Part shown: piece after piece, positions 1,325 through 23,809 of the stretch
How positions within the stretch are numbered: the first letter of the stretch is position 1
How the letters are laid out: each line of letters begins with the position of its first letter
NCBI RefSeq assembly: GCF_014192215.1
Contig: NZ_JACHXP010000012.1
Coordinates: 1-64,000, forward strand
From: Halomonas cerina
GTDB taxonomy: Bacteria; Pseudomonadota; Gammaproteobacteria; Pseudomonadales; Halomonadaceae
Direction of reading: 5' to 3'
Length of the DNA: 64,000 nucleotides
Translations under genes and position numbers: made by a program
Notes under the pieces: generated by a model
What the model was told of the DNA's origin: nothing
Seen by the model: the letters and a program-made list of their open reading frames with translations, nothing else
The model's database searches: none

Positions 1325-1336
1325 GGCGAAATCTCC

Positions 1337-2587: not shown

Positions 2588-2633
2588 AGGGGTCTCCTCC
2601 AGGATCCCGCCGGCATGGCCGGCGGGAACGGGC

Positions 2634-4096: not shown

Positions 4097-4177
4097 ACCG
4101 AGTCGGGGATCGGCTCCCCTGGCTCGGCACCCGGCGCGCTTCCTCAGCGCCGGGCACGGAAAGGTCCGGACACGACA

Positions 4178-4210
4178 CGCCGCGGCCCATCCTCAGGATG
4201 GGCCGCGGCG
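4178..4210 (-). terminator. Perfect 16-bp hairpin after gbcB
   Basis: Two 16-base arms (4178-4193 and 4195-4210) are perfectly complementary around a single central base, starting 27 bases past the gbcB stop. There is no clear T-run on the gbcB strand, so it may act as a 3' stability hairpin or a weak terminator rather than a classical intrinsic terminator. Confidence 0.55.
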
Positions 4211-4236
4211 GGCGTATCGGGCGTGCCGGGCGGTGG

Positions 4237-5343: not shown

Positions 5344-5669
5344 TGTCGTGTCGCCTGGGCTGCAGCATGAGGGTCTCCGACCGCGGTGCCACCGCCTGCC
5401 GTTGTGCGAATTCTGCGCAGCGCCGCCGGACACGACTTGCCTGTCTGCGACATGGGCATGTCCATGACATCCACCCCCGCCATTTTTCGTTCTTCACCGC
5501 GTCGCTGCTGCATCGCCACACGTCGCCGGCAGACAACCGCCCCCCAGACCGCTGCTCCACACTCGCTGCAACCCGCCACGGCCCACTCCGCCGCGCGGCC
5601 ACTCACCTGGCTGTACCCCCGAACAACCCCGAGGCCGCCATAGCGGCCCTGAAATGAGGATATGCCTCC
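5344..5669. promoter_or_regulatory. Divergent gbcB/gbcA control region
   Basis: This 326-base gap separates two oppositely transcribed halves of one enzyme, so it should hold both promoters and activator sites. The clearest element is an interrupted palindrome, GACATGGGCATGTC at 5449-5462, near the centre. A GAGGA ribosome site at 5656-5660 serves gbcA. I could not assign -35/-10 boxes with confidence. Control by GbdR is inferred from the pathway and the presence of gbdR in the window. Confidence 0.5.
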
Positions 5670-6956
5670 ATGGACTCCATGTCTCTCGCTCGCCTGGATG
5701 ACTCCCTTGCCCCGGCCCGCGAGGCCACCGTCGAGATGCTGCAGCAGCGCCGGCACCACTTCTCGCTCCCTCAGCCCTTCTACAACGATGAACGGCTGTT
5801 TCGCCTGGACATGCAGGAGATCTTCGAGAAGGAGTGGCTGTTCGCCGGCATGACCTGCGAGATCCCCGCCAAGGGCAACTTCATCACCCTCGATGTGGGG
5901 GACAACCCGGTGGTCATCGTGCGTGGCAACGACGGCAAGGTGCACGCCTTCCATAACGTCTGCCGTCACCGCGGCTCGCGGCTGTGCGTCACCGACAAGG
6001 GCAAGGTGGCCAAGCTGGTCTGCCACTACCACCAGTGGACCTACGAGCTGGATGGCCGCCTGCTGTTCGCCGGCAGCGACATGGGCAAGGATTTCGACCT
6101 CGGTGCCTACGGGCTCAAGCCCGTCCAGGTGCAGACCGCCGGGGGCTATATCTTCGTCAGCCTGGCCGACGAGCCCCCGGCCATCGACGAGCTCCTCGAG
6201 GCGCTGGATCGCTACCTGGCCCCCTATGACATGGACAACGTCAAGGTCGCGGTGGAATCCAGCATTGTCGAGCAGGCCAACTGGAAGCTGGTGCTCGAGA
6301 ACAACCGCGAGTGCTACCACTGCAACGGCGCCCATCCCGAGTTGCTCAACTCCCTGCAGGAGTTCGACGACACCGATGACCCCCGGGCGACCCCGGCCTA
6401 CAAGGCGCTGGTGGCCCGCAAACAGGCCGACTGGGAAGCCCAGGGCGTGCCCTTCAAGCTCACGCGGCTTGGTCGTCGCAACCGCCTGACCCGCACGCCA
6501 CTGCTGAACGGCACCGTCTCCATGACCATGGACGGCCAGCCGGGCTGCAAGAAGCTGATGGGCCGCCTGCAGAGCCCCGACATGGGCTCGCTGCGCATCC
6601 TCCACCTGCCCAACTCCTGGAACCACTACATGGGCGACCACGCCGTGGTGTTCCGGGTGATGCCGCTGGGGCCCCAGAAGACCGTAGTGACCACCAAGTG
6701 GCTGGTCCACAAGGATGCCGTGGAAGGCGTCGACTACGACCCGGCCCAATTGCGCCGTGTCTGGGACGCTACCAACGACCAGGATCGCCGGCTTGCCGAG
6801 GAGAATCAGCGCGGCATCAATTCCAAGGGCTACGAGCCGGGCCCCTACTCCGAGACCTTCGAGTTCGGGGTGATCGACTTCATCGACTGGTACAGCGAGC
6901 GCATGCTCGAGAATCTGGGCAATAGCGCCCCGCATCTCCAGCTGGCCCAAGGCTGA
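5670..6956 (+). CDS. gbcA: Glycine betaine demethylase, Rieske oxygenase component
   Basis: This is the catalytic subunit that removes the first methyl group of glycine betaine, giving dimethylglycine and formaldehyde. The 428 residues match the family. The Rieske 2Fe-2S ligands are CRHRG near residue 99 and CHYHQW near residue 120; the mononuclear iron motif NRECYHCNGAHPE lies near residue 213. The ATG at 5670 is nine bases after GAGGA; an in-frame ATG at 5679 is possible. A separate ATG at 5662 is in another frame and has no long reading frame. It is divergent from gbcB rather than in one operon with it. A strong hairpin follows the stop. Confidence 0.96.
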   Translation: MDSMSLARLDDSLAPAREATVEMLQQRRHHFSLPQPFYNDERLFRLDMQEIFEKEWLFAGMTCEIPAKGNFITLDVGDNPVVIVRGNDGKVHAFHNVCRHRGSRLCVTDKGKVAKLVCHYHQWTYELDGRLLFAGSDMGKDFDLGAYGLKPVQVQTAGGYIFVSLADEPPAIDELLEALDRYLAPYDMDNVKVAVESSIVEQANWKLVLENNRECYHCNGAHPELLNSLQEFDDTDDPRATPAYKALVARKQADWEAQGVPFKLTRLGRRNRLTRTPLLNGTVSMTMDGQPGCKKLMGRLQSPDMGSLRILHLPNSWNHYMGDHAVVFRVMPLGPQKTVVTTKWLVHKDAVEGVDYDPAQLRRVWDATNDQDRRLAEENQRGINSKGYEPGPYSETFEFGVIDFIDWYSERMLENLGNSAPHLQLAQG

Positions 6957-10726: not shown

Positions 10727-12445
10727 TTACCCCTTGACGATCACGTTGTGGCCGGCGAGCTCACCGCGGAAGTCCCGCAGCAGCCCCAGCACCGGATTGG
10801 GCGCCGCCTGCCCCAGACCACAGATAGAGGCGTCCATCATCACCTGGGACAGCCGTTCGAGCTCGGCGACCTGCCACTCGTCGCGCTCGAGCAGCGTCAG
10901 CATCTTCTCGGTGCCTACCCGGCACGGGGTGCACTGGCCGCAGGACTCGTCGGCGAAGAAGGCCAACAGGTTGGTGGCCACCAACCTGAGGTCATCCTGG
11001 TCGGAGAGCACGATGATGGCCGCCGAGCCGATGAAGCAGCCCGCCTCCTGCAGGGTATCGAAGTCCAGCGGGATATCGGCCTTGCTGGCCGGCAGGATGC
11101 CGCCGGAGGCGCCACCGGGCAGGTAACCGGCCAGCCGGTGGCCCTCGGCCATGCCGCCGCAGTACTCCTCGATGAGTTCGGTGAGAGTGATGCCGGCGGG
11201 TGCCAGATGCACGCCAGGTCGGCGGACGCGGCCGGATACCGAGAAGCTGCGAAGCCCCCGGCGACCGTGGCGGCCATGGCCGGCGAACCAGTCGGCGCCG
11301 CGCTGCCGGATCAACGGGATCCAGTAGACGGTCTCGACATTGTTGACCAGGGTCGGACGGCCGAAGAGCCCGCGCTGGGCGACGAAGGGCGGGCGGTGGC
11401 GCGGCTTGCCCGGCTTGCCCTCCAGCGACTCGATCATCGCCGACTCCTCACCGCAGATGTAGGCTCCCGCGCCGCGGCGCAGCACGATATAGCCCGGATC
11501 GCTCAAGCCGGCCGTCTCGAGTTCGGCGATGGCCTCGCGCAGCACCCGATGCAGGCCGGGATATTCATCACGCAGGTAGATATACAGTGCCTCGGCCTCC
11601 ACGGCCCAGGCGCTGACCAGGGCCCCCTCAAGGAAGCGATGCGGCGAGCGTTCGAGGTAGTAGCGATCCTTGAAGGTGCCGGGTTCGCCCTCGTCGGCGT
11701 TGATGGCGCAATAGCGCGGGCCAGGCTCGGCCCGCACGAACTGCCACTTCTTGAAGGTCGGGAAGCCGGCGCCACCCAGCCCGCGCAGCCCCGAGGCTTC
11801 GAGCATCTTGGTCAGCGTCTCGACCGTCACCTGGCCGGCACGGCAATCGGCGAGCAGCCCGTAGCCGCCCTCGCCGCGATAGTCCTCCAGACGCTGCCAG
11901 ACGATCGCCTCGGGATGGTAGTGACCGGTATCGACCACCGCCTCGACGCCCTCGCGCGTCGCGTACAGCACATGATGGTGCCCCACTTCCACCACCGGGG
12001 CCGTGTCGCAACGCCCCATACAGGGCGCACGAATCACCCGCACTCGCGCCGGGTCGGCGCCCGCTGCCAGCTCGGCCTCGAGCGTGGCGGCCCCGGCCAG
12101 CTGGCAGGAGAGCGAGTCACAGACCCGGACCGTCGTCTCCGGCGGCGGCACCTGGTCGTCGTGGACCACGTCGAAGTGGGCATAGAAGGTGGCGGTCTCG
12201 TAGACCGCGGCCATCGGCAGGTTCATGTAGGCGGCCAGCGCCCGGAGGTTCAGCAGGGACAGGTGGCCATGGGCATCCTGGAGGGCATGCAGGTGCTCGA
12301 TCAGCAGGTCGCGCCGCTGCAAGCCGGGCTGCTCCCGCTCGTCACCGAGCAGCTGGCGAAGCGCCGCCAGGGCAACGGGGGGGAAGTCACGGCCACGCGG
12401 CTTGCCGCGGTGGCGACGCTTGGGAGTGACGGTCTCGACGGTCAT
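10727..12445 (-). CDS. fdsB: Formate dehydrogenase gamma-beta fusion subunit (NuoE-NuoF like)
   Basis: This is the NADH-forming diaphorase part of soluble formate dehydrogenase. In the 572 residues the first 155 or so resemble the gamma/NuoE thioredoxin-like 2Fe-2S protein (CDSLSCQLAG and CMGRCDTAP supply four cysteines). The rest is the beta/NuoF protein with the FMN/NAD region (GLGGAGFPTFKKW, then GAGAYICGEESAMIESLEG) and a C-terminal 4Fe-4S motif (CGQCTPCRVGTEKM...CGLG). In many fds operons these are two genes, fdsG and fdsB; here they form one open frame. It heads the operon. A GAG and an AACAAC stretch precede the ATG. The gene symbol is by analogy. Confidence 0.93.
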   Translation of the reverse strand: MTVETVTPKRRHRGKPRGRDFPPVALAALRQLLGDEREQPGLQRRDLLIEHLHALQDAHGHLSLLNLRALAAYMNLPMAAVYETATFYAHFDVVHDDQVPPPETTVRVCDSLSCQLAGAATLEAELAAGADPARVRVIRAPCMGRCDTAPVVEVGHHHVLYATREGVEAVVDTGHYHPEAIVWQRLEDYRGEGGYGLLADCRAGQVTVETLTKMLEASGLRGLGGAGFPTFKKWQFVRAEPGPRYCAINADEGEPGTFKDRYYLERSPHRFLEGALVSAWAVEAEALYIYLRDEYPGLHRVLREAIAELETAGLSDPGYIVLRRGAGAYICGEESAMIESLEGKPGKPRHRPPFVAQRGLFGRPTLVNNVETVYWIPLIRQRGADWFAGHGRHGRRGLRSFSVSGRVRRPGVHLAPAGITLTELIEEYCGGMAEGHRLAGYLPGGASGGILPASKADIPLDFDTLQEAGCFIGSAAIIVLSDQDDLRLVATNLLAFFADESCGQCTPCRVGTEKMLTLLERDEWQVAELERLSQVMMDASICGLGQAAPNPVLGLLRDFRGELAGHNVIVKG

Positions 12446-12569: not shown

Positions 12570-12950
12570 CTAGCCCATCTCTACCGCCGCATAGGCCACC
12601 ATCTCGACGCGCATCGCCTCCCGGGCGAAACCGGAGACGATGATGGCGGCTCGGTTGGGGTAGGGCTCGCGCACGTACTCGGCATAGACCCGGTTGACCG
12701 TGGCCAGGTCCTCTCGGGCGGTGACGTAGATCAGCACCTGGGTCAGGGCCTCCATGCCGGCGCCGGCCTTCTCCAGGATGTGGGCCAGGTTATCCAGGGT
12801 CTGGCGGGTCTGGGCTTCGATACCGCCCTCGACCACCTCGCCATCGGCGCCGATGGGAATCTGGGCGGTGAAGAGGATGCCGTTGCCGACAACGGCCCAT
12901 TCCAGGGGCGCCTTAGAGGCGAAAAGATCGGTGCTCACGGGGTGAATCAT
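12570..12950 (-). CDS. RidA/YER057c/UK114 family protein
   Basis: This 126-residue protein has the RidA fold length and pattern (GNGILFTAQIPIG near residue 24, a C-terminal VEMVAYA segment). RidA proteins hydrolyse reactive enamine/imine intermediates; catabolic paralogues often act on pathway-specific imines. The canonical RidA arginine that binds the substrate carboxylate is expected near residue 105; an Arg is present in EAMRVEMVA. It is the last gene of a co-oriented run of six (aldehyde dehydrogenase to RidA), 15 bases after the DUF3726 gene. The pathway substrate is unknown. It may deal with an imine formed by oxidation of an amine taken up by the neighbouring carrier. Confidence 0.88.
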   Translation of the reverse strand: MIHPVSTDLFASKAPLEWAVVGNGILFTAQIPIGADGEVVEGGIEAQTRQTLDNLAHILEKAGAGMEALTQVLIYVTAREDLATVNRVYAEYVREPYPNRAAIIVSGFAREAMRVEMVAYAAVEMG

Positions 12951-12965
12951 CGGTGATGTCTCGTG

Positions 12966-13733
12966 TCAGTCGTTGTCGTTGGTGCCGGCGCCGGCACCCT
13001 CACGGGAGGCCTCGGTGGCCTCCACCAGCATGCGGTTGGCGAGTTGCTTGAGGCGTTCCCAGACGGCCTCGTCGACCTCGATGCCCTCCGCCAGGGATCG
13101 GTGGCGGCAGGCCAGCAGGTCCGCTTCGTCGTGACGCGCCAGCAGGTCGTAGCGATAGTCCGAACGCATCGCCGGCAGCAAATCGACGTGGTTGGCCATC
13201 ACCAGGGTGATGCCGTCGTTGGGCTCGTTCTCTTCCGGGATCTCGTGGACCGCGTAGACGCGGATCTCCGGTGCCGAGCCATTGGCCCGGAAGCCGACGA
13301 CCTGCTCGGTCAGCGGCTGCTGGGCGTTGCGCCAGAAGGCGGTGACATTCATGCCGCGGCCCGCCAAGCGGGCCAGGTAGCCCATGATCAGCTGGCGGTT
13401 GTGGCAGTGACGGATCTTGGTCACCGAGAGCCCCCGGGCACGGGCCTTGGCGAAGCCGAGCTCCAAGGCCAGGGTGGAGCTTCTCAGCACGCTCTGGCCA
13501 TGGCCGTCGACCACCGCCAGATCGCCATCCTGGTAGAGCACGCTGGGCAGCTCATCGGGATCGTCGTCGAGCAGGAAGTCCAGGCCTCGGTTCAGGGCGG
13601 CCAGGCCGCCGAGGCCAAAGCACTGCATCCAGGCGACCATGTCGGCGGCATCCGCCGCGTCGCCTTCCTCGAAGCCCATGCCAATGAAGGCCTTGCGGCA
13701 CAGACCCTGCAACTCGTTATAGGACGCCTTCAT
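12966..13733 (-). CDS. DUF3726 family protein, LDH2-like fold suspected
   Basis: This 255-residue protein resembles the uncharacterised DUF3726 family. Its N-terminus (a helix, a G.EEGDA.DAADMVAWMQ stretch, then GLGGL..LNRGL) has the pattern of the LDH2/malate-lactate dehydrogenase family, where a ligand-binding lobe follows an N-terminal helical hairpin. The usual longer LDH2 C-terminal half is absent (LDH2 enzymes are about 330-360 residues). A GGGAG site lies eight bases before the ATG, which overlaps the stop of the 583-residue gene as ATGA. It is followed by RidA. The family name is recalled with moderate confidence; catalytic activity is not established. Confidence 0.72.
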   Translation of the reverse strand: MKASYNELQGLCRKAFIGMGFEEGDAADAADMVAWMQCFGLGGLAALNRGLDFLLDDDPDELPSVLYQDGDLAVVDGHGQSVLRSSTLALELGFAKARARGLSVTKIRHCHNRQLIMGYLARLAGRGMNVTAFWRNAQQPLTEQVVGFRANGSAPEIRVYAVHEIPEENEPNDGITLVMANHVDLLPAMRSDYRYDLLARHDEADLLACRHRSLAEGIEVDEAVWERLKQLANRMLVEATEASREGAGAGTNDND

Positions 13734-15481
13734 GGTGTGTCTCCCACCCCTTGGTCTCGTTCATGCATGATGCCTTCGGGCTCCAGCGGGAAGCTCCAGT
13801 CATCGAAGTCGGCCAGGTCCCGGGGTTCGGCGTTGAGTTCCTCCACCAGCGGTGCCCCCTGGAAGAGGGTGATACGCACCCAGCGGTCGGACTTGGGATC
13901 GAAGCGGCTGGCCCCGAAGAACGCCAGCTTGGTGCGTAGCAGGTGCATGGGCTTCATGTCCCGATGCCAGAGGTTGGCACGAATTTCCCCGTAGGGCGTC
14001 TCGGCCATGGTCTGGATGCGCCGCACGATGTCCTTGTGCCGCGGATGGGCGATCAAAAACTCCACCACCAGCGCGCGGGGATGGGCATCGAGGAAGTCGC
14101 TCAAGGCCGCATGGGTACGGCTGACGCGAGGCGCGATGGCCAGCGGCAGTTCCTTCTCGGCGCCGGGCTCGACGCCACGCACGCCGAGCCGGGGTTCCTC
14201 CTTCTCGGCGGAACGATACCAGAACCAGTGACGCGCCTCGGGCTGCGTGAAGTCCTCGGCCAGGGCCCAGTCGTCATGAGTCTCGATCAGCTGCTTGAGC
14301 CGCACCAGGGGCATGTCCGGGGTCAGTTCCAGGCGCTCGTCGGTGCCCATCCGATCCTCCAGGGCATCGACCCGCTCGGGATACAGTTCGATCAGCAGAG
14401 TATTGACCAGCTCCTGGGCCTCCAACGGCAGGGTGCGTGCGCTCCAGGCCACCAGCTGCTGCCAGAGATCGGCCTCCAGCGGCACTTCCTCGAGCCAGGC
14501 GATCACTTCCGGCAATGCCGCCACCGTGGCGGCATTGCGCGCGCCCTGCTCGGCGTCCTCGGTGACCGTCTGGGCCAAGTGGTGCATCGCGCGTCGAGTG
14601 AGCTCGATCAGCCGCCGGCGGCTTTCCTCGTCCGGCGCCTGGCCCAGCGCCAACGCCAGGGCAGTCTCCCGGCACAGCACCCACTGCTGGATCAGCTGGG
14701 GATGGTTGATCAGGAAAGGGGCCATACCCAGGCCGGTGGAGTTGCCGATGCCCAGATAGCGGCGCAGTTCGGTGGCCATAGGCACCGCGCTCTCGGGCGC
14801 CTGGCAGCGGGCGATATGTTCGACCTGCTCGATGGAGAAGTGGCGCAGCAGGTAGACCGCTAGCATCTGGGCCGAGAAGGGTCGGTGGAAGTCGGGGTTG
14901 TCCTGCAGGCGCACGAAGTCGGCGATGCCGAACTTGCCGTTGCCGTAGACCGCCGTGGTCCGGTAGAGGTAGCCGACCCGTGTTAGCCCGGCCGGGTCGG
15001 GCTGGCGGCCGGTCGACAGCGCCGCCACGAAATGGGCGAAGTTGCGCAGGCTGCGGTTGGCGCGCGACAACACCAGCAGGCGCGGGTGCTGCCGTCCGGC
15101 CTCCTGAAGCGGCACGTTGGCCGCCATCTGCTCGAGCAGGGCGTCGTCCACGTCGCCCTCGACCACCCCGAAGGTGACGTCCCAGGCCTGGGCGATCACC
15201 CGGTCGGAACGCTGGTCGTCCTCGAGGTGCTGGGAGAAGATCACCCCGTGATAGCGGCCCTGGGGCGTCTGCAGCCGATAGATGGCGATGCCGTGACCCT
15301 GGGCGTTCAGATCGAAGCGGGTGCGGCTGATCTGCCAGCGCTGGCGTGCCATCTGGCGGACCAGGCTGCGCACGAAGCTGAGGCGACTGGCCGGCAGGCT
15401 GCCTAGCCGTTCCAGTTGCATGACCTCGTCAGCGGGGCGCAGCGGGGCCGGCAGGATCGTCGGGGTGGCGAACTCAACCAT
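13730..15481 (-). CDS. Conserved-looking 583-residue protein of unknown function
   Basis: No family was recognised. The product is soluble, without a signal peptide or membrane segment, and rich in Arg, Glu and Leu. Notable stretches are YGNGKFGIADF near residue 178, a glycine-rich GIGNSTGLGMAPFLINHPQL near residue 247 and a C-terminal RDLADFDDWSFPLEP. AAGGAG lies seven bases before the ATG. The start overlaps the BCCT carrier gene by eight bases and its stop overlaps the DUF3726 gene as ATGA, so expression is tightly coupled. The context (carrier, dehydrogenase, RidA) suggests a catabolic enzyme or assembly factor for the same substrate; this is inference only. Confidence 0.85.
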   Translation of the reverse strand: MVEFATPTILPAPLRPADEVMQLERLGSLPASRLSFVRSLVRQMARQRWQISRTRFDLNAQGHGIAIYRLQTPQGRYHGVIFSQHLEDDQRSDRVIAQAWDVTFGVVEGDVDDALLEQMAANVPLQEAGRQHPRLLVLSRANRSLRNFAHFVAALSTGRQPDPAGLTRVGYLYRTTAVYGNGKFGIADFVRLQDNPDFHRPFSAQMLAVYLLRHFSIEQVEHIARCQAPESAVPMATELRRYLGIGNSTGLGMAPFLINHPQLIQQWVLCRETALALALGQAPDEESRRRLIELTRRAMHHLAQTVTEDAEQGARNAATVAALPEVIAWLEEVPLEADLWQQLVAWSARTLPLEAQELVNTLLIELYPERVDALEDRMGTDERLELTPDMPLVRLKQLIETHDDWALAEDFTQPEARHWFWYRSAEKEEPRLGVRGVEPGAEKELPLAIAPRVSRTHAALSDFLDAHPRALVVEFLIAHPRHKDIVRRIQTMAETPYGEIRANLWHRDMKPMHLLRTKLAFFGASRFDPKSDRWVRITLFQGAPLVEELNAEPRDLADFDDWSFPLEPEGIMHERDQGVGDTP

Positions 15482-17063
15482 GGAGAGGCTCCTTGGGACG
15501 ACGAGAGGTCAATCCCTGGGCCCTGGCCATGGCATAGGCCGCCTGGGGACCGGTCCACAGCGAGGGCAGCAAGACCAGTGACACCGGAATCGCGGTAATC
15601 ACGATGAACTGCTGAAGGACACTGATCTGGCCCGCTCCCATATAGAGCAGGATCCCCGCCATCAGTGCCATGGCGATGCCCCAGAAGGCACGGACCAGGG
15701 CGTCGGGCTGGTCGTGGCCGGAGCCCACCACGGCGATGGCATAGCTCATCGAGTCCCCGGTGGTGGCGACGAAGATAGTGGTCAGCACCAGGATGGCCAG
15801 GGCCATCAGGGTGCCCCCCGGGAGGGCCTGGGCCACGGTGAGGGTGGCGACATCGAACTGGAAGTTGTTCAGCGCCTCGGTGAGATCGATCATCCCGGTC
15901 AACTGGAAGTGGATCCCCGAGCCGCCGAGCAGGGTGAACCAGACCGTGGTGGCGATGGGCGCCATGACCGCCACGGCGAGGATCATCTGGCGGATGGTTC
16001 GCCCGCGGGAGATGCGCGCCACGAAGATCGCCATCAAGGGGCCATAGCCGATGAACCAGGCGAAGAAGAACACCGTCCACCACTGCATCCACCAGGCTGG
16101 CGCCGTCTCGGCGGTCATGGTGGCCATGGTGAAGAAGGAGGTCAGGTATTCGCCGAAGCCCTGGGTGAAGGCATTGGTCAGAAACAGCGTGGGCCCGAAG
16201 AGGAAGATCACCGCGGCGATGGCCAGGGCCAGGAAGACATTGAACCGGCTGAGCCACTGGATGCCCCGGTGGATGCCGGTCACCGCGGAGGTGACATAGA
16301 CGGCGGCCAGCGCCACCAGGATCACCAGTTGGGTGGCGTAACCGGCCGGCAGGCCCAGCAACTCGTGCAGGCCGAAGCTCACCTGGGTGGCCAGAAAACC
16401 GATGGGGCCCACGGTGCCGGCGACCACGGCGATCACGCACAGGGCGTCGACCACGCCACCGAGGGCGCCGCTCATGACCCGTTCGCCGAGCACCGGGTAA
16501 AGCAGGGTGCGCGGCTGCAGGGGTTGCCCCTTATCGTAGTGGGCATGGGCTAGCACGATGGCGGTCAACGAGCCGAGTACCGCCCAGGCCAGAAAGCCCC
16601 AATGCATGAAGGACTGGGCCAGGGCACCGGCCACGGCCTCGGCGGTGCCCGCCTGGGTATCGAAGGTCGGTGGCGTCACCACGAAGTGATAGACCGGTTC
16701 ACCGGCGGCGAAGAAGACGCCGCCTCCGGCCAGCAGGGTGCACATGATGATCGACAGCCACTTGAAGGTGCTGATCTCCGGGGTCGCACGGTTGCCGATC
16801 CTGGCGCTGGCAGCCGGTGACACGGCCACGCCTAGGCCGATGAAGAAGGTCAGCAGCAACAGCAGCTGGAAATAGGACCCCAGCGTGCTGGCGGTCCAGG
16901 CGAAGCCGGCACCGATCGCGTTCGCCACCATGTCGATGTCATACAGCGACAGGGCGACGAACAGCACGATGAAGCCCACACTGAGACCGAGGACGATGGG
17001 ATCCCCCAGCCGAGGCTCCTTGGCGGCCCGGGCCGCCTGGGTAGCGATGTTATCTTGTGTCAT
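15474..17063 (-). CDS. BCCT family transporter with atypical aromatic box
   Basis: This 529-residue inner-membrane carrier has about 12 transmembrane segments and belongs to the betaine-carnitine-choline family (the conserved ARISRGRTIRQ after TM8 is clear). In the TM8 region it reads WTVFFFAWFIGYGP where betaine and choline carriers have WTxFYWAWWISWSPF, so two or three of the box tryptophans are replaced by Phe and Tyr. The substrate is therefore probably not plain glycine betaine, though an amine or zwitterion is likely. No long C-terminal osmosensory tail is present. It lies 68 bases downstream of the M19 homologue and overlaps the 583-residue gene. Its leader holds an AACAACAA motif and a hairpin. 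Confidence 0.9.
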   Translation of the reverse strand: MTQDNIATQAARAAKEPRLGDPIVLGLSVGFIVLFVALSLYDIDMVANAIGAGFAWTASTLGSYFQLLLLLTFFIGLGVAVSPAASARIGNRATPEISTFKWLSIIMCTLLAGGGVFFAAGEPVYHFVVTPPTFDTQAGTAEAVAGALAQSFMHWGFLAWAVLGSLTAIVLAHAHYDKGQPLQPRTLLYPVLGERVMSGALGGVVDALCVIAVVAGTVGPIGFLATQVSFGLHELLGLPAGYATQLVILVALAAVYVTSAVTGIHRGIQWLSRFNVFLALAIAAVIFLFGPTLFLTNAFTQGFGEYLTSFFTMATMTAETAPAWWMQWWTVFFFAWFIGYGPLMAIFVARISRGRTIRQMILAVAVMAPIATTVWFTLLGGSGIHFQLTGMIDLTEALNNFQFDVATLTVAQALPGGTLMALAILVLTTIFVATTGDSMSYAIAVVGSGHDQPDALVRAFWGIAMALMAGILLYMGAGQISVLQQFIVITAIPVSLVLLPSLWTGPQAAYAMARAQGLTSRRPKEPLHG

Positions 17064-17083
17064 GTCATTGGCCTATGTTAGCC

Positions 17084-17109
17084 GGGTCCGCACGGACCCT
17101 CTTGTTGTT
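17084..17109 (-). promoter_or_regulatory. Leader hairpin plus AACAACAA motif before the BCCT gene
   Basis: On the minus strand AACAACAA (17102-17109) is followed within three bases by a perfect hairpin with GGGTCCG/CGGACCC arms (17084-17099), ending 20 bases before the ATG. The A-rich motif matches the AAYAAYAA form known for Hfq/Crc catabolite-repression targets in Pseudomonas. The hairpin might alternatively be an attenuator or a processing site. Confidence 0.45.
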
Positions 17110-17131
17110 GTCGGGTATCGACGCGGGGTGC

Positions 17132-18139
17132 TCAGGCGACGGCCTCCACATCCGGTGTGGGGACGGCGGCGCGGTACAGCAGATCGACCCAGTTGCGGCC
17201 CATGACGCGCTCGATCGAGGCCTCGTCGAAGCCGCGCTGGCGAAGTCCCGCGATCAGATTCGGGAAGTCGCGGTTATCCCGGAACCATGTCAGGGGGCGC
17301 GGCCAGTCCGCGTTGGCCTTGCTACCCTCGCCGTAATCCATCTCCTTGGACCAGCGACCGTTGCGCATCCATTCCAGCACCGAGGTGGGTTGCGCCTGGC
17401 ACAGGTCGGTCCCGATGGCGATGTGCTCGATGCCCATCAGGTCGGCGGTGCGGGCGACCATGTCGCAGAAGTCCTCGAGGGTACAGTCGGGCCCGTTGCG
17501 CAAGTGAAAGGGGTAGGCGGAGAAGCCCAGCAGGCCGCCACATTCGGCGATCGCCGCGAGCACCTTGTCCGACTTGTTGCGCTTGGCGGCATGGAAGGAG
17601 CTGGGGTTGGCATGGGAGATGATCACCGGGCGTTCGGAGAGCTCCACGGCTTCCAGGGTCGAGCGCTCGGCGCTGTGGGACATGTCGATGACCATGCCCA
17701 CCCGGTTCATCTCGTGGATCACTTGGCGGCCGAAGCGGGTGATGCCACTGTCCTCGGCTTCGTAGCAGCCGCAGGCCAGCAGGCTCTGGTTGTTGTAGGT
17801 CAACTGCATGATCAAAAGGCCCAGGCGACGCATCACCTCGACCATGTCGATGTCATCTTCGATGGGCGAGCAGTTCTGGGCCCCGAGGAAGATGCCGATT
17901 TTGTCCGCCTGCCGGGCGCGTTCGATATCGCCGGGCTCGCGGACCGGCATGATCAGGTCGCCGTGAGCCTCGAAGCGGCGGTTCCACTCGCCGAGGCGTG
18001 ACAGGGTCTCGCGGGTGTTCTCGTGGTAGACCAGGGTCGCGTGGACGGCATCGACGCCGCCCTCGCGCATCTGCTCGAAGATCTCCCGGGACCAGTTCGA
18101 GTACTGCAGACCATCGATGGTCAGGATGTCCTTGGACAT
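17132..18139 (-). CDS. M19 membrane-dipeptidase homologue lacking canonical metal ligands
   Basis: This 335-residue protein has the M19 amidohydrolase fold: DMSHS near residue 150, ISHANPSS near 173 and GIEHIAIGTDL near 236 match the conserved His, His and Asp positions. However, the first strand reads IDGLQYSNW where dipeptidases have DGHxDL, and the bridging Glu position reads GAQN, so three canonical metal ligands appear missing. No signal peptide is seen, so it should be cytoplasmic. GGAG precedes the ATG by seven bases. It is paralogous to the protein at 31620-32597. Annotation as a dipeptidase would be formal only; the real reaction is unknown. It lies between the aldehyde dehydrogenase and the BCCT carrier. 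Confidence 0.88.
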   Translation of the reverse strand: MSKDILTIDGLQYSNWSREIFEQMREGGVDAVHATLVYHENTRETLSRLGEWNRRFEAHGDLIMPVREPGDIERARQADKIGIFLGAQNCSPIEDDIDMVEVMRRLGLLIMQLTYNNQSLLACGCYEAEDSGITRFGRQVIHEMNRVGMVIDMSHSAERSTLEAVELSERPVIISHANPSSFHAAKRNKSDKVLAAIAECGGLLGFSAYPFHLRNGPDCTLEDFCDMVARTADLMGIEHIAIGTDLCQAQPTSVLEWMRNGRWSKEMDYGEGSKANADWPRPLTWFRDNRDFPNLIAGLRQRGFDEASIERVMGRNWVDLLYRAAVPTPDVEAVA

Positions 18140-18150
18140 GGGGCGTCTCC

Positions 18151-19590
18151 TCAGGCCTTGACGTAGCAGGTCTTGACCACGGTGTAGAATTCACGGGCAT
18201 AACGCCCCTGCTCACGGGGGCCGAAGCTCGAGTCCTTGCGACCGCCGAAGGGCACGTGGTAGTCGGTGCCGGCGGTGGCCAGGTTGACCATCACGCAGCC
18301 GGTCTCGGCGCGGGCCTTGAAGTCATTGGCCAGCTTCAGCGAGTCGGTGATGATGCCGGCCGTGAGACCGAAGTTGGTGTCGTTGAGGGTGGCGATGGCC
18401 TGTTCATAGTCACGCACCTTGATCACGCAGGCGATGGGGCCGAAGACCTCCTCGCGATTGATGGCCATGTCATTGGTGGTGTCGGTAAACAGCGCCGGGG
18501 CCATGAAGAAGCCCTCGGTGTCGCGCTCGAGGCGCTCGCCGCCGAAGGCCAGGGTGGCGCCGTCGGCACGGGCACGCTCGACCCAGGCCAGGTTGGCTTC
18601 CAGCTGGCGGGCGTCCACGGCCGGGCCCATGTGCACGCCCGCTTCCAGGGCATGGCCGACCCTGATGGTCTTCAGCTTGGCGATCAGCTTGTCGACGAAG
18701 GCATCGTGGACCGCCTCGGTGACGATCAGCCGCGAGGAGGCGGTACACTTCTGGCCGGTGCCGGAGTAGGCGCCGGCGAAGGCGGCCTCCACGGCCAGGT
18801 CCAGATCGGCGTCGTCGGCCACGATCAGGGCATTCTTCGAGCCCATCTCCAGCTGGCACCGGACCAGGTTGCCGGCGGTGGCGGCAGCCACGCGGCGGCC
18901 CACGCCCAGCGAGCCGGTGAAGCTCAGGGCATCGATCTCGGGGCTCGAGATCAGCGCATCGCCGACGCTGCTGCCTGGGCCCATCAGCAGGTTGAAGGTC
19001 CCGTCGGGCAGGGCCTGGCGGCTGATGATCTCAGCCAGGGCCCAGGCGCTGGCGGGGACTAGGTTGGCCGGCTTGAAGATCACCGCATTGCCGAAGGCCA
19101 GCGCCGGGGCGATCTTCCACACGGCGGTGGCCATGGGAAAGTTCCAGGGACTGATGATGCCAACCACGCCGACCGGCTCGCGGCGGGTATCGATCTCGAC
19201 TCCCGGACGCACGGAGTCGACCCGCTCATCGATCTGACGCAGCACCTCGGCGGCGTAGTAATGGAAGAACTGGGCGGAGCGATAGACCTCGCCGACGCCC
19301 TCGGCGCGGGTCTTGCCCTCCTCGCGAGCGAGCAATTCGCCGAGCTCGTCCTTGCGGGCGACCAGCTCGTCGCCGATGGCCATCAGCACGCCATAGCGCT
19401 GCTCGAGGCCGCTCCCACGCCACTCGGCCAGGCCGCGCCTGGCCGCGGTGATGGCTTGCTGCACCTGGTCGAGGCTGGCCTGGGCATAGTTACCGATCAC
19501 ATCACGGGTGTCGGAGGGGTTGACGTTGGTGACGCTATCCGGGCCGTCGAGCCAGGCACCGCCGATGTACAGGGAATGAACGTGGGACAT
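18151..19590 (-). CDS. NAD(P)-dependent aldehyde dehydrogenase
   Basis: This 479-residue ALDH superfamily enzyme oxidises an aldehyde to an acid. Visible are the Asn motif PWNFPMAT near residue 145, cofactor region FKPANLVP near 172, GxG of FTGSLGVGRR near 224, catalytic Glu in LEMGSKN near 247 and catalytic Cys in GQKCTASSR near 281. The closest remembered group is alpha-ketoglutarate semialdehyde or aromatic-type dehydrogenases rather than BetB. AAAGGAGG before the ATG is a strong ribosome site. It is the first gene of the six-gene run and is divergent from a LysR regulator. The substrate may be the aldehyde made from the compound imported by the BCCT carrier. Confidence 0.92.
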   Translation of the reverse strand: MSHVHSLYIGGAWLDGPDSVTNVNPSDTRDVIGNYAQASLDQVQQAITAARRGLAEWRGSGLEQRYGVLMAIGDELVARKDELGELLAREEGKTRAEGVGEVYRSAQFFHYYAAEVLRQIDERVDSVRPGVEIDTRREPVGVVGIISPWNFPMATAVWKIAPALAFGNAVIFKPANLVPASAWALAEIISRQALPDGTFNLLMGPGSSVGDALISSPEIDALSFTGSLGVGRRVAAATAGNLVRCQLEMGSKNALIVADDADLDLAVEAAFAGAYSGTGQKCTASSRLIVTEAVHDAFVDKLIAKLKTIRVGHALEAGVHMGPAVDARQLEANLAWVERARADGATLAFGGERLERDTEGFFMAPALFTDTTNDMAINREEVFGPIACVIKVRDYEQAIATLNDTNFGLTAGIITDSLKLANDFKARAETGCVMVNLATAGTDYHVPFGGRKDSSFGPREQGRYAREFYTVVKTCYVKA

Positions 19591-19712
19591 GGAAACCTCC
19601 TTTGGACGTTGTCGTCATCCTAGGAGGGAATCCGAGATAAATATAATCAATAATATATTAAAAATGATAAACTAGATTTACCACCATCACTATCGTCGTG
19701 CCGGGAGGCGAC
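19591..19712. promoter_or_regulatory. AT-rich divergent promoter region, ALDH / LysR
   Basis: Within a GC-rich genome the stretch 19637-19680 is strikingly AT-rich (runs such as AATATATTAAAAATG). It lies between two divergent genes, the usual place for LysR operators and overlapping promoters. No unambiguous T-N11-A box was chosen because many overlap. Confidence 0.6.
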
Positions 19713-20597
19713 ATGCTGCCGGAGCTCAAGATCCAGCCGTTGCGCTATGTGCTGGCCATCATGGATGAGGGCGGCTTTCATGCCGCCGCCCGCCATCTGC
19801 ACCGGACCCAGCCGGCGCTGTCCATGGCCATCAGGGAACTGGAACAGCGCCTGGGGGAGCCGCTCTTCGAGAAGGGCGGCAAGGCCACCCTGACGCCCTT
19901 CGGCAGCTGGTGCGCACCGCGCTTTCGCGAACTGGTGGCCCACCACGACCGCGTGAGCCGTGACGCCTTGGCCATGGCCAGCCATCAGGCGGGACGCGTG
20001 GATATCGCCACCGTCCCGTCGGTGGCCAGTCGCTTGATGCCCCGCCTCCTGGCGAGCTTCGTGGTCGCGTATCCGGGTATCGAGATCAGCCTGCGTGATG
20101 GCCACTCCGAGCTGGTGAATCAGATGGTGCTGAGCGGCGAGGTGGAACTCGGCATCACCAGCCTCTGGCAGGCCGAGGAGGGGCTGGACTTTACTCCGCT
20201 GCTGCATGACGAGATCGGCGTAATATGTCGCGACGACCACCCGCTGGCTAGGCGCGACCGCCTGCACTGGCGAGAGCTGACCGGGCATACCCTGATCCGC
20301 AATGGCACCTCGCGCCTGCTCGAAGGCTCACCGGCGGCCGGGCTGCTCGAACAGAGCAGGTTGTACATCTCCAACATGATCTCGCTGACCGCGATGCTCG
20401 AGGCCGGTATCGGCATCACTACCCTGCCCCGCCTGGCGTTCCAGGAAGAGCATGCGCGACTGCGCTTCCTTCCATTGGCCGAACCCCGCCTGGAGCGCCG
20501 GATCGGCCTGCTGTGCCGAGCACGCGTCAGCCTGTCACCGGCGGCGGCGGCCATGCGGCGGCATCTGCTGGAGCACCTGGTGGCGGAAGGCGTGTGA
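19713..20597 (+). CDS. LysR-family transcriptional regulator
   Basis: This 294-residue protein has an N-terminal winged helix (LRYVLAIMDEGGFHAAARHL then TQPALSMAIRELEQRLGEPL, residues about 8-55) and a periplasmic-binding-like effector domain. ATG 19713 follows GGGAGG by four bases and is preferred over an in-frame GTG at 19698. The gene is divergent from the six-gene run beginning with the aldehyde dehydrogenase, so it most likely controls that run in response to the transported substrate or an intermediate. LysR proteins usually also repress their own promoter in the shared gap. The effector is not predictable from sequence. Confidence 0.92.
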   Translation: MLPELKIQPLRYVLAIMDEGGFHAAARHLHRTQPALSMAIRELEQRLGEPLFEKGGKATLTPFGSWCAPRFRELVAHHDRVSRDALAMASHQAGRVDIATVPSVASRLMPRLLASFVVAYPGIEISLRDGHSELVNQMVLSGEVELGITSLWQAEEGLDFTPLLHDEIGVICRDDHPLARRDRLHWRELTGHTLIRNGTSRLLEGSPAAGLLEQSRLYISNMISLTAMLEAGIGITTLPRLAFQEEHARLRFLPLAEPRLERRIGLLCRARVSLSPAAAAMRRHLLEHLVAEGV

Positions 20598-20663: not shown

Positions 20664-20837
20664 TTACGCGGCGACGCTACCGTGGGGATCGATACCCCGA
20701 ATAAGCTGGCCGCGACGCCCGTTAAGCGGCGACACTGCCGTGGGGATCGATACCCCGAATAAGCTGGCCGCGGCGCCCGTTAAGCGGCGACACTGCCGTG
20801 GGGGTCGATGACGAATTTCTTGGCCGCGCCGCCATCG
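20664..20837 (-). repeat. Three 58-bp tandem copies of the fdhA 3' end
   Basis: Units starting at 20664, 20722 and 20780 are 58 bases apart. The third includes the real C-terminal codons and stop of fdhA (encoding IDPHGSVAA); the two upstream-coordinate units lie downstream of the gene and repeat that end with small changes, including the same TTA stop complement in the middle copy. They are non-coding relics of local duplication, possibly conserved as transcript-end structures. Confidence 0.85.
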
Positions 20838-21973
20838 AAGTCGGCGTAGCCCTTGGGCGCCTCGTCCAGGGTGATCATCTTAACATTGACCGCATCGGCG
20901 ATGTTCACTTTACCGAACAGGATCGCCTGCATCAGCGGCCGGTGGTACTGCATCACCGGGCACTGGCCGGTATGGAAGGAGTGCGACTTGGCCCAGCCGA
21001 GGCCGAAGCGCATGCTCAGCGCGCCGTGCTTGGCCGCCTCGTCGGCCGCGCCCGGATCTTCGGTCACGTACAGACCCGGGATACCGATCTGGCCGCCGGC
21101 GCGGGTCAGTGACATGGCGGAGTTCAGCACGGTGGCCGGCGCTTCCTTGCCGTGGTTGCAGCCACAGGCATGGGCCTCGAAACCGACGCAGTCGACGAAG
21201 GCGTCGACCTCGCGCTCGCCGAGGATCGCCTCGATCCTGTCGGCCATGTCGCCTTCCAGGGTCAGGTCGAGGGTCTCGCAGCCGAAACTGCGGGCCTGGG
21301 CCAGGCGCTCTTCGATCATGTCACCGACGATCACGCAGGCCGCCCCCAGCAGCTGGGCGGACACGGCCGCCGCGAGACCTACCGGGCCGGCCCCGGCGAT
21401 GTAGACGGTGGAGCCCGGACCCACGCCGGCGGTGACACAGCCATGGAAACCGGTCGGAAAGATATCGGACAGCAGCGTCAGGTCCTTGATCTTCTCCATG
21501 GCCTGGTCGGCGTCCGGGAACTTCAGCAGGTTGAAGTCCGCGTAGGGCACCATGACGTACTCGGTCTGGCCACCGACCCAGCCGCCCATGTCCACGTAGC
21601 CGTAGGCGGCACCAGGACGCGACGGGTTGACGTTGAGGCAGATGCCGGTGCGGCCTTCCTTGCAGTTGCGGCAGCGACCACAGGCGATGTTGAACGGCAC
21701 CGAGACCAGATCGCCGGGCTTGATGAACTCGACGTCGCGGCCGGCTTCGATGACCACGCCGGTGATCTCGTGGCCCAGCACCAGGCCCGACGGGGCGGTG
21801 GTGCGGCCGCGCACCATGTGCTGGTCGCTGCCGCAGATGTTGGTGGTGACGACTTTCAGGATCACGCCGTGGTCGCACTTGCGATGGCCGAGAGCGAGTT
21901 CCGGATAGGCGATGGATTCGACGGCGACTTCACCCGGGCCCTTGTAGACGACTCCGCGGTTGGCTGCACTCAT
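20780..21973 (-). CDS. fdhA: Glutathione-independent formaldehyde dehydrogenase
   Basis: This zinc-dependent medium-chain dehydrogenase oxidises formaldehyde to formate with tightly bound NAD, like the Pseudomonas putida enzyme. The 397 residues include catalytic zinc ligands in ICGSDQH near residue 46 and GHEITG near 67, structural zinc cysteines in CGRCRNCKEGRTGIC near 97-111, and the nucleotide motif YIAGAGPVGLAAAVSA near 180. ATG 21973 is preceded by AGGAAG; a longer frame without a ribosome site was rejected. It should detoxify the formaldehyde released by GbcAB, DgcAB and SoxBDAG. It is divergent from the BCCT gene at 22235. Its 3' end is tandemly repeated downstream. Confidence 0.95.
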   Translation of the reverse strand: MSAANRGVVYKGPGEVAVESIAYPELALGHRKCDHGVILKVVTTNICGSDQHMVRGRTTAPSGLVLGHEITGVVIEAGRDVEFIKPGDLVSVPFNIACGRCRNCKEGRTGICLNVNPSRPGAAYGYVDMGGWVGGQTEYVMVPYADFNLLKFPDADQAMEKIKDLTLLSDIFPTGFHGCVTAGVGPGSTVYIAGAGPVGLAAAVSAQLLGAACVIVGDMIEERLAQARSFGCETLDLTLEGDMADRIEAILGEREVDAFVDCVGFEAHACGCNHGKEAPATVLNSAMSLTRAGGQIGIPGLYVTEDPGAADEAAKHGALSMRFGLGWAKSHSFHTGQCPVMQYHRPLMQAILFGKVNIADAVNVKMITLDEAPKGYADFDGGAAKKFVIDPHGSVAA

Positions 21974-22234
21974 GGCTGGCTTCCTTCGACATTGTTGTAG
22001 GGGGGCGGCGAAAGCCGCCGCTCCTCGACGATAGCCGCTTCTCACGGCCGGAATGTTCCGTACGAGTCACCGCCATGCCAATTCGAGACATCCTCGCCAC
22101 CATCTCGAGACGAATGTGCCGATGGATACCCGGAGGTCGTTTTCACGACACTGCCGGTCTCGCAATGCGCCAAGAATGTCCGGCGTCGACCGCCTCGCGT
22201 GGCGACACGACAACAACAAACGAGGACTTCCCTG
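21974..22234. promoter_or_regulatory. Divergent fdhA / BCCT control region with AACAACAA motif
   Basis: This 261-base gap must hold both promoters. On the plus strand AACAACAA at 22212-22219 lies two bases before the GAGGA ribosome site (22222-22226) of the carrier gene. This matches AAYAAYAA Hfq/Crc target sites, which usually overlap or adjoin ribosome sites. On the minus strand the fdhA leader has a weaker CAACAAT stretch. Promoter boxes were not resolved. Confidence 0.5.
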
Positions 22235-23809
22235 ATGCAGCATGACGACGACCCGGTCCTGACGCCAGGACAGGACAATACCCAGGTGCTCGGCCTGGAC
22301 TTCCACAACCCCGTCTTCCCGCTCTCCGCCCTGGCCATCCTGGCCTTTATCCTCTACGCCCTGATCTACCCCGAGGCGGCCAACAGCCAGCTGACCGGGG
22401 CACGCGGCTGGTCGATCGAGCACTTCGACTGGCTGTTCATGATCGCCGGTAACGTCTTCGTGATCCTGTGCCTGGCGCTGATCGTGCTGCCCCTGGGCCG
22501 CATCCGCCTGGGCGGCCAGGACGCCCGGCCGGAGCACTCGCTGGTCTCGTGGTTCAGCATGCTGTTCGCCGCCGGCATGGGCATCGGCCTGATGTTCTGG
22601 AGCGTGGCCGAACCGGTGGCCTACTACACCGACTGGTACGGCACGCCCCTGAATGCCGCCGCGGGCACCCCGGAAGGCGCCCAGGCGGCGATGGGCGCCA
22701 CCATGTTCCACTGGGGTCTGCACCCCTGGGCGATCTATGGCGTGGTGGGCCTTTCCCTGGCTTTCTTCGCCTACAATCGCGGCCTGCCGCTGACCCTGCG
22801 CTCCGCCTTCACCCCGCTGTTCGGCGAGCGCACCCGGGGCTGGCTCGGCCACATCATCGACATCATCGCGGTGCTGGCGACCATCTTCGGCCTGGCCACC
22901 TCGCTGGGCCTCGGCGCCTCCCAGGCCGCCGGCGGCCTCAACTACCTGTTCGACGTGCCCAACACCATCGGCACCCAGATCGCCATCATCATCGGCGTCA
23001 CCGCGGTGGCGCTGTTCTCGGTGTGGCGCGGCATCGACGGCGGCGTCAAGCTGTTCTCCAACATCAACATGGTGATCGCCCTGCTACTGCTGCTGTTCGT
23101 GGTGCTGACCGGCTCCACCCTGCTGTTCGTCAACGGCCTGTGGGACACCACCCTGGCCTACGCCAGCCATGTCCTGCCGCTGTCCAACTGGATCGGCCGC
23201 GACGACACCACCTGGTACCACGGCTGGACGGTGTTCTACTGGGCCTGGTGGATCTCCTGGTCACCCTTCGTCGGCATGTTCATCGCCCGGGTCTCGCGGG
23301 GGCGCACCGTACGCGAGTTCCTGACCGCCGTGCTGCTGGTCCCGACCCTGGTCACCATCGTGTGGATGAGCGCCTTCGGCGGAAACGCCCTGGCCCAGTC
23401 CGCGGCCGGCGTCGGCGAGCTGGCCAATGGCATCAGCGACGTCTCCCTGGCGATGTTCCAGATGCTCGAGCACCTGCCGCTGACCACCCTGACCTCCACC
23501 ATGGCCATCGTCCTGGTGCTGGTGTTCTTCATTACCTCCTCGGACTCCGGCTCGCTGGTGATCGACAGCATCACGGCCGGCGGCAAGGTCGATGCGCCAC
23601 GCACCCAGCGGGTGTTCTGGGCCACCCTGGAAGGCGTGATCGCCGGCGTCCTGCTCTATGGCGGCGGCAGCGAGGCACTCACCGCCCTGCAGGCCGGCGC
23701 CGTGGCCACCGGCCTGCCCTTCACTATCGTGCTGCTGGTGATGTGCGTGGGCCTGGTCAAGAGCCTGCGTGAGGAACATCGCATGCTGAGGCTCGCCCCG
23801 ACCACCTGA
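22235..23809 (+). CDS. BCCT family betaine/choline transporter
   Basis: This 524-residue inner-membrane carrier has about 12 transmembrane segments and the full family box WTVFYWAWWISWSPFVGMF near residue 330, followed by ARVSRGRTVRE. It also has the glycine-rich TM3 segment GMGIGLMFWSVAEP near residue 112. These fit a glycine betaine or choline carrier coupled to sodium or protons. It lacks the long cytoplasmic C-terminal tail of osmoregulated BetT proteins, favouring catabolic uptake over osmotic control. The start at ATG 22235 has GAGGA eight bases upstream. It is divergent from fdhA and ends at an intrinsic terminator. It is the best candidate in the window for feeding GbcAB. Confidence 0.93.
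   Translation: MQHDDDPVLTPGQDNTQVLGLDFHNPVFPLSALAILAFILYALIYPEAANSQLTGARGWSIEHFDWLFMIAGNVFVILCLALIVLPLGRIRLGGQDARPEHSLVSWFSMLFAAGMGIGLMFWSVAEPVAYYTDWYGTPLNAAAGTPEGAQAAMGATMFHWGLHPWAIYGVVGLSLAFFAYNRGLPLTLRSAFTPLFGERTRGWLGHIIDIIAVLATIFGLATSLGLGASQAAGGLNYLFDVPNTIGTQIAIIIGVTAVALFSVWRGIDGGVKLFSNINMVIALLLLLFVVLTGSTLLFVNGLWDTTLAYASHVLPLSNWIGRDDTTWYHGWTVFYWAWWISWSPFVGMFIARVSRGRTVREFLTAVLLVPTLVTIVWMSAFGGNALAQSAAGVGELANGISDVSLAMFQMLEHLPLTTLTSTMAIVLVLVFFITSSDSGSLVIDSITAGGKVDAPRTQRVFWATLEGVIAGVLLYGGGSEALTALQAGAVATGLPFTIVLLVMCVGLVKSLREEHRMLRLAPTT

What the first reader, a model, noticed from the sequence alone, without database searches (positions are those of the whole stretch)
12570..19590. Six-gene catabolic run of unknown substrate: ALDH, M19 homologue, BCCT, two unknown proteins, RidA
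All six genes run on the minus strand with overlaps at the BCCT/583-residue junction (8 bases) and the 583-residue/DUF3726 junction (ATGA), and a LysR gene is divergent. A carrier, an aldehyde dehydrogenase, an imine-handling RidA and two uncharacterised proteins together look like a complete uptake and oxidation route. The substrate is probably an amine or zwitterion related to betaine, but the carrier has an altered aromatic box, so it is probably not betaine itself. The unusual M19 homologue could be the first catalytic step.
Basis: partly seen in the sequence, partly recalled or inferred. Interest (0 to 1): 0.72.

Follow-up and report, generated by a model that had tools for sequence, protein, structure and literature searches.

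The report
Homarine-type catabolic operon, RidA variant
Six neighbouring genes of a salt-loving bacterium look like a pathway for taking up and breaking down homarine, a common marine nitrogen compound, with an alternative last step and a protein whose predicted shape matched nothing solved so far.

Summary
The six genes are real and lie where stated, behind a divergent LysR gene. Their core, a 583-residue protein (U583, no Pfam match), DUF3726 and a degenerate M19 protein, recurs in Gammaproteobacteria, Alphaproteobacteria and two Bacilli bins, usually with an aldehyde dehydrogenase and a carrier. In Roseobacters, Shinella and Halieaceae the operon adjoins sarcosine-oxidase-like genes that I take for Mgd (N-methylglutamate dehydrogenase), reported to act in homarine catabolism. 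I read it as the homarine (hom) operon; the 2026 paper is not held, so this rests partly on recall. New, as far as I could see: the operon carries either a DpkA-like imine reductase (Ldh) or RidA. Of 129 loci, 58 have RidA, 29 Ldh, 42 neither, none both, and the tree shows at least two swaps. I propose one shared imine, N-methyl-2-iminoglutarate: Ldh reduces it to N-methylglutamate; RidA, as here, hydrolyses it to 2-oxoglutarate and methylamine (inferred; methylamine use is not supported in Halomonas). M19 lacks the dipeptidase ligands, DUF3726 is an Ldh_2 fold without its catalytic part, and U583, confidently predicted, matched no solved fold. The module also occurs without the aldehyde dehydrogenase, so it is probably wider than homarine.

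The parts
19698..20597 (+). LysR-type regulator, divergent
   Evidence: PF00126/PF03466; LysR in the stretch in 60 of 80 named loci
19666..19682 (.). putative LysR box, GGTAAATCTAGTTTATC on the minus strand (GRTAA-N7-TKATC)
   Evidence: pattern in 16 of 20 aligned LysR-ALDH intergenic stretches (window and 19 chosen loci), 0.001 of mononucleotide shuffles; the pattern was chosen after seeing the alignment
18151..19590 (-). aldehyde dehydrogenase, nearest to 2,5-dioxovalerate/alpha-ketoglutarate semialdehyde dehydrogenases but below their cut-offs
   Evidence: PF00171; 493.6 bits against cut-off 750; catalytic Cys in 75 of 75 rows
17132..18139 (-). M19-fold protein with degenerate metal site
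   Evidence: PF01244; nearest structure 2i5g; L11 79/81, Y13 76/81, Q88 81/81, Y115 81/81; H155, H176, R187 81/81; D245 80/81
15474..17063 (-). BCCT carrier with operon-specific aromatic box
   Evidence: PF02028; F374 and Y377 in 61 of 62 rows
13730..15481 (-). U583, orphan protein, proposed ring-opening enzyme together with DUF3726
12966..13733 (-). DUF3726, degenerate Ldh_2-fold partner of U583
12570..12950 (-). RidA-family imine hydrolase
   Evidence: PF01042; Arg100 in 55 of 56 rows
10727..12445 (-). NuoEF-like diaphorase of a formate dehydrogenase (adjacent, possible C1 sink)
   Evidence: homologues near the operon in 4 of 80 named loci: L010, L012, L014, L036
7884..10721 (-). formate dehydrogenase alpha subunit (adjacent)
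   Evidence: TIGR01591 698 bits, over cut-off 666
20780..22045 (-). glutathione-independent formaldehyde dehydrogenase (neighbour, part uncertain)
   Evidence: TIGR02819 742 bits, over cut-off; close homologues in L008 and L010

Best explanation
This is a homarine (N-methylpicolinate) catabolic operon of the hom type, in a RidA-bearing form. Shown: gene order, conservation, RidA/Ldh alternation, active-site changes. Inferred: BCCT imports homarine; U583 with DUF3726, perhaps helped by M19, oxidises and opens the pyridinium ring at C5-C6; C6 leaves as formate, burned by the adjacent formate dehydrogenase; ALDH oxidises the C5 aldehyde, giving N-methyl-2-iminoglutarate. In relatives a DpkA-like reductase reduces that imine to N-methylglutamate for Mgd. 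Here RidA hydrolyses it to 2-oxoglutarate and methylamine. LysR acts through a box at 19666-19682.
For: Order LysR-ALDH-M19-(carrier)-U583-DUF3726 in Halomonas, Marinobacter, Pseudomonas, Roseobacters and, with RidA between LysR and ALDH, in Vibrio, Photobacterium, Psychrobacter and Shewanella. Sox-type genes adjoin the operon in 5 of 80 named loci, four Halieaceae and one unclassified gammaproteobacterial bin, and in 4 of 8 plasmid loci used; in the three roseobacters an AraC gene lies between, as tmaR lies beside mgd in R. pomeroyi (PMC13390433, passages). [quoted passage not shown] The TM1040 Ldh is nearest to DpkA: 184 bits, next 136; DpkA reductively methylaminates 2-oxo acids (PMC6775277, passages). 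ALDH is nearest to enzymes of a C5 2-oxo acid with a C5 aldehyde. RidA or Ldh, never both: 58, 29, 0, and 42 with neither, of 129 loci (L158 repeats L076). Swaps in the tree: RidA rows L153 and L154 inside a clade with Roseobacter Ldh rows; Ldh rows L049, L058, L064 in a clade with RidA rows L099, L040, L051. Two unnamed 1.4 Mb genomes from the class of Pelagibius carry the set with an ABC carrier and Ldh.
Against: The homarine paper was not held; 'homABCDER' and its gene content are recalled. No growth or assay data. That the Roseobacter and Halieaceae sox-type genes are Mgd is inferred from place and divergence; no proven Mgd sequence was compared. The window's own soxB, about 11 kb away, is 55% identical to the TM1040 one and would pass the same identity threshold; I judge it sarcosine oxidase because it is closer to 2gag (575 against 438 bits). 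GmaS, a route to use methylamine, passes its cut-off in 5 of 20 genomes and in none of the eight Halomonadaceae tried. 20 of 80 named loci have neither RidA nor Ldh in the stretch, 8 of them among the 60 with enough flank. The RidA of L153 and L154 is oppositely oriented, and rows are related, so the counts are not independent. Formate dehydrogenase is near in only 4 of 80. In the TM1040 Ldh the catalytic His is kept but, by my count, a Tyr stands where DpkA has Arg48. No cofactor or oxygenase signature was found in U583.
Confidence: 0.66

Rival explanations
1. Same operon logic, but a different N-methylated zwitterion in Halomonas (for example trigonelline or stachydrine) that also ends in an N-methyl amino acid or imine.
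For: Soil Pseudomonas and Rhizobiales carry relatives; U583 also occurs in loci without ALDH; carriers differ (BCCT 45-54% identical in Pseudomonas and Halieaceae, ABC in others). Rieske oxygenase, FAD oxidoreductase and ALDH genes of a demethylation type lie near the operon in Phaeobacter and Pseudomonas MPC6.
Against: No Rieske or flavin demethylase inside the operon, which known stachydrine routes need (recalled); the BCCT box signature is shared by 61 of 62 carriers from several classes; a 41-row fork (support 94), 39 rows of it with ALDH, holds the Halomonas, Marinobacter and Pseudomonas rows.
Confidence: 0.18
2. The operon serves the neighbouring glycine betaine route (GbcAB, sarcosine oxidase, SHMT, FDH), for instance by handling a dimethylglycine product.
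For: Window 3-6956 holds a soxA fragment, soxD, soxB, SHMT, GbcB and GbcA; a dipeptidase gene (pepD) precedes dgcAB in Vibrio natriegens and P. aeruginosa (PMC12093977, passages), and the nearest M19 structure is 2i5g (its origin in P. aeruginosa is recalled).
Against: GbcA and GbcB homologues over 80% identical lie near the operon in 1 of 80 named loci (L010), otherwise only distant ones; the carrier lacks the betaine box; ALDH scores 395 of 668.6 bits as betaine aldehyde dehydrogenase.
Confidence: 0.06
3. A hydroxyproline-like route ending in alpha-ketoglutarate semialdehyde.
For: ALDH best NCBIfam models are alpha-KGSA dehydrogenases and the LysR best model is L-proline-binding PsrA.
Against: Both far below cut-off (493.6 of 750; 134.8 of 540); none of the six operon genes is an epimerase, D-hydroxyproline dehydrogenase or dihydrodipicolinate-synthase-like gene.
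Confidence: 0.05

Closest known systems
Homarine catabolic (hom) operon, Ferrer-Gonzalez et al. 2026, Nat Microbiol 11:1531 (not read; citation seen in PMC13390433)
   Same: five enzyme-type genes plus LysR, and a sox-type (Mgd) link, in Roseobacter relatives; the gene content of hom is recalled, not seen
   Different: here RidA in place of the imine reductase, no adjacent Mgd, BCCT inside the operon, adjacent formate dehydrogenase
[quoted passage not shown]
   Same: closest solved relative of the enzyme that stands where RidA is; DUF3726 shares the fold
   Different: DUF3726 lacks the catalytic stretch and much of the middle part
M19 dipeptidases and the M19 structure 2i5g
   Same: fold by sequence; 2i5g 225 bits
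   Different: the dipeptidase His-x-Asp, Glu and His sites are Leu/Tyr, Gln and Tyr; 2i5g shows Gln and Tyr too in the printed alignment
Glycine betaine BCCT transporters
   Same: family, three box tryptophans
   Different: Y197, W374 and W377 replaced; 311.9 bits against cut-off 650
Trigonelline pathway (tgn, Acinetobacter; recalled)
   Same: an ALDH and a hydrolase after ring opening of an N-methylpyridinium acid
   Different: its two-component flavin monooxygenase has no counterpart in this operon

Membership tests
hom operon | conserved LysR plus ALDH, M19, U583, DUF3726 set shared with Roseobacters | tested here: met
   that this set is the published one is recalled
hom operon | Mgd (N-methylglutamate dehydrogenase) linked | tested here: inconclusive
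   sox-type genes linked in Roseobacters, Shinella and Halieaceae, not within 10 kb in Halomonas loci; window soxB is judged sarcosine oxidase
hom operon | DpkA-like reductase in the operon | tested here: not met
   RidA instead; no Ldh hit in the own genome, though the tool warns that an empty answer shows little. That the reductase belongs to the published set is recalled, so this does not exclude membership
hom operon | homarine supports growth and induces the genes | not testable with these tools
   needs cultures
M19 dipeptidase | binuclear metal ligands | tested here: not met
   the His-x-Asp site is placed by position, the Glu and His sites by alignment to 5lx0; which residues are ligands is recalled
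Ldh_2 oxidoreductase (for DUF3726) | fold | tested here: met
Ldh_2 oxidoreductase (for DUF3726) | catalytic His of the SHG motif | tested here: not met
   Phe in the window, variable in the family
RidA imine hydrolases | substrate-carboxylate Arg | tested here: met
   55 of 56 rows; role of the Arg recalled
alpha-ketoglutarate semialdehyde dehydrogenase | NCBIfam equivalog cut-off | tested here: not met
   493.6 of 750 and 480.3 of 770 bits
glycine betaine BCCT | full aromatic box and equivalog cut-off | tested here: not met
any solved fold (for U583) | structural match | tested here: inconclusive

The most novel reading that the evidence does not exclude
U583, DUF3726 and the degenerate M19 protein form a new kind of catalytic module with a new fold that opens N-methylated nitrogen rings. 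Homarine is only one substrate. The imine it yields has two interchangeable exits: reduction by Ldh (N-methylglutamate, then Mgd) or hydrolysis by RidA (2-oxoglutarate plus methylamine). This would make homarine a direct marine source of methylamine in RidA-type bacteria such as Halomonas, Marinobacter and Vibrio.
Probability: 0.33. Interest if true: 0.8.

Novelty: new variant of a known kind. Interest (0 to 1): 0.57.

Why it matters
Homarine occurs in diatom cells and R. pomeroyi drew it down with a mean lifetime of 2 h or less (PMC12817926, passages). If this operon burns it, the two forms predict different nitrogen fates, glutamate or free methylamine, for the same compound in different marine bacteria. 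The reading also gives two uncharacterised families (U583, DUF3726) a testable role, and shows an M19 protein kept under strong constraint after losing the dipeptidase site.

Tried and rejected
M19 as an ordinary dipeptidase: rejected, ligands gone. Glycine betaine as substrate: disfavoured on the BCCT box, the ALDH scores and the rarity of GbcAB near the operon. The window's sox genes as Mgd: disfavoured, closer to sarcosine oxidase. GmaS as support for the methylamine branch: not supportive. Literature: DUF3726 in no held paper; 'homarine degradation' none; no held paper from 2015 on had homABCDER or homABCDE (its ten papers came through 'N-methylpicolinic'); RidA with iminoglutarate and hydrolysis none. 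These searches cover only the held open-licence papers. PDB by sequence for U583: nothing for the single sequence up to E 10, only hits of E 0.15 or worse for the profile. VIA: for DUF3726 only Ldh_2 entries stood out; for U583 none. Sigma-70-like promoters: 0 found, 0.8 expected; terminators 3 found, 2.7 expected.

Selection to bear in mind. The 40 unnamed stretches come from 36 of the 53 positive genomes. Of 168 plasmid records nine stretches were fetched and eight used; L103 bore no annotation. Presence was scored by tblastn (E 1e-6, 30% of the query) anywhere in the stretch, for the plasmid loci and the window by annotation. Rows are related, so the Fisher value (0.0001) overstates. In the tree (115 rows) 11 short named loci were left out on purpose and three unnamed loci (L156, L170, L171) had no full U583 ORF. 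L029 also has Ldh among RidA-type relatives, but 7.7 kb away on the other strand, so I do not count it as a swap. One Aliiroseovarius carrier at another position has the betaine-like box, the exception.

Full report
OBSERVATION. All six minus-strand ORFs, the 8-base and 4-base overlaps and the divergent LysR gene are as described. Pfam names five of the six; the 583-residue protein (U583) hits nothing in Pfam or NCBIfam. The window is the first 64 kb of contig C12 of a 4.17 Mb draft genome. The nearest named U583 loci are Onishia and Halomonas. U583 occurs once in the own genome.

SPREAD. A protein search filled its list of 8000 relatives. In these 80 stretches DUF3726 is found in 79, M19 in 74, ALDH in 67, BCCT in 63, LysR in 60 and RidA in 52. 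DUF3726 rings in 11 of the same 274, ten shared with U583 and adjacent; the eleventh, G171, with a 345-residue frame matched only in its first half, looks like a true Ldh; two U583 genomes (G190, G214) gave no DUF3726 hit. The operon is an accessory trait: within the genus 19 genomes have U583 and at least 20 lack it.

LINK TO HOMARINE. On plasmids of Ruegeria TM1040, Phaeobacter and Aliiroseovarius the order is LysR, ALDH, M19, (BCCT), U583, DUF3726, Ldh, directly behind an AraC-type gene and four sarcosine-oxidase-like genes (in Aliiroseovarius the BCCT follows Ldh). Shinella has the same with an ABC betaine-type carrier and purU. In four Halieaceae loci and one gammaproteobacterial bin such genes follow DUF3726 or the carrier; all four are seen in L018 and L050, others are cut or partly called. 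These SoxB proteins form two groups, 40-46% identical to each other, 54-55% (Alphaproteobacteria) and 43-45% (Halieaceae and the bin) to the window's SoxB. The window's SoxB is closer to solved sarcosine oxidase than the TM1040 one is (575 against 438 bits). In R. pomeroyi the AraC regulator TmaR lies beside mgdABCD, and Mgd takes part in homarine catabolism according to PMC13390433 (passages). That the genes above are Mgd is my inference. The homarine paper itself (doi 10.1038/s41564-026-02313-7) was not held. I recall from its abstract a homABCDER operon, N-methylglutamate and glutamate as products, and presence in Rhodobacterales, SAR11 and SAR116. Five enzyme genes and one LysR fit that name, and two unnamed 1.4 Mb genomes, one a single 1.41 Mb contig, carry ALDH, M19, U583, DUF3726, an ABC carrier and Ldh (L137, L138). 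SAR11 genomes are of that size (recalled). This is an inference, not a reading of the paper.

TWO FORMS. The gene that is Ldh in Roseobacters is nearest to DpkA, delta1-piperideine-2-carboxylate reductase, which also reductively methylaminates 2-oxo acids (PMC6775277, passages). In Halomonas, Marinobacter, Pseudomonas, Vibrio and others Ldh is not found near and RidA is. Over 129 loci (80 named, 40 unnamed, 8 plasmid, the window; L158 repeats L076): RidA 58, Ldh 29, both 0, neither 42. In the U583 tree (quick method) RidA rows L153 and L154 sit in an 8-row clade (99) with Roseobacter Ldh rows, and Ldh rows L049, L058 and L064 share an 8-row clade (99) with RidA rows L099, L040 and L051: at least two swaps. 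No locus with the sox-type pair by my thresholds has RidA (5 of 80 named, 4 of 8 plasmid), but the window's own sarcosine oxidase lies about 11 kb from a RidA-type operon and would pass the identity threshold. The simplest reading is that RidA and Ldh act on one intermediate, an imine.

CHEMISTRY, INFERRED. Homarine to N-methylglutamate needs one ring carbon, C6, to leave. With formate as the other product the formulas differ by H6O4, and to 2-oxoglutarate, methylamine and formate by H6O5, a net two- and four-electron oxidation. ALDH takes two electrons and Ldh gives two back, so in both cases one more two-electron oxidation is needed before ALDH; U583 with DUF3726 is the candidate. ALDH is nearest to dehydrogenases of a five-carbon 2-oxo acid with a C5 aldehyde, which is what a ring opened at C5-C6 would offer. 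Formate release fits the formate dehydrogenase next to the operon in the window, L010, L012, L014 and, in another family, L036, 4 of 80 named loci. Against the methylamine exit, GmaS passes its cut-off in 5 of 20 genomes, none of the eight Halomonadaceae.

WIDER MODULE. Many alphaproteobacterial stretches have U583-DUF3726-M19, often with Ldh, but no ALDH found, and S. meliloti pSymB and Aminobacter pAA02 carry a distant paralogous triad with an ABC carrier of another type and RidA (33% identity). The triad is therefore probably a general catalytic unit.

VERDICT. Probably a homarine operon in a RidA-bearing variant. The pathway as such is probably already published; the RidA/Ldh alternation, the loss of the M19 site and the orphan model of U583 are what I would follow. 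I could not see whether the paper reports them.

Noticed in passing
window 3-6956: Glycine betaine island near the operon: soxA fragment cut by the contig end, soxD, soxB (closer to true sarcosine oxidase), SHMT, GbcB and GbcA, with formate dehydrogenase between it and the operon.
   Followed up: partly
own genome, contigs C5, C6, C12, C33: Two soxA copies, each seen as pieces at contig ends, which suggests a repeat that broke the assembly.
   Followed up: no
L101 11944-23167 and L102 9968-17699: Sinorhizobium meliloti pSymB and Aminobacter pAA02 carry a distant U583-DUF-M19 triad with IclR, an ABC carrier and RidA but no ALDH beside it; substrate unknown.
   Followed up: partly
L157, L158, L159 (Pelagibius genome G491): Three U583 copies in one genome, only one with ALDH and Ldh, as if the family had split by substrate.
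   Followed up: no
G837, G568, G565, G575, G690, G760, G311, G279: U583 matches in pieces or with stops, signs of decay of an accessory operon or of assembly error.
   Followed up: no
L099 6279-14414: The gene set in a split, divergent form on a plasmid of Antarctic Pseudomonas sp. MPC6 typed as conjugative, so it may move between bacteria.
   Followed up: no
L096 15487-22970 and L099 1-6207: Rieske oxygenase, FAD oxidoreductase and ALDH genes next to the operon in Phaeobacter and Pseudomonas MPC6 look like a second demethylation cluster.
   Followed up: no
window 22199-23809: A second BCCT, of the betaine type with full aromatic box, divergent from a glutathione-independent formaldehyde dehydrogenase.
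   Followed up: partly
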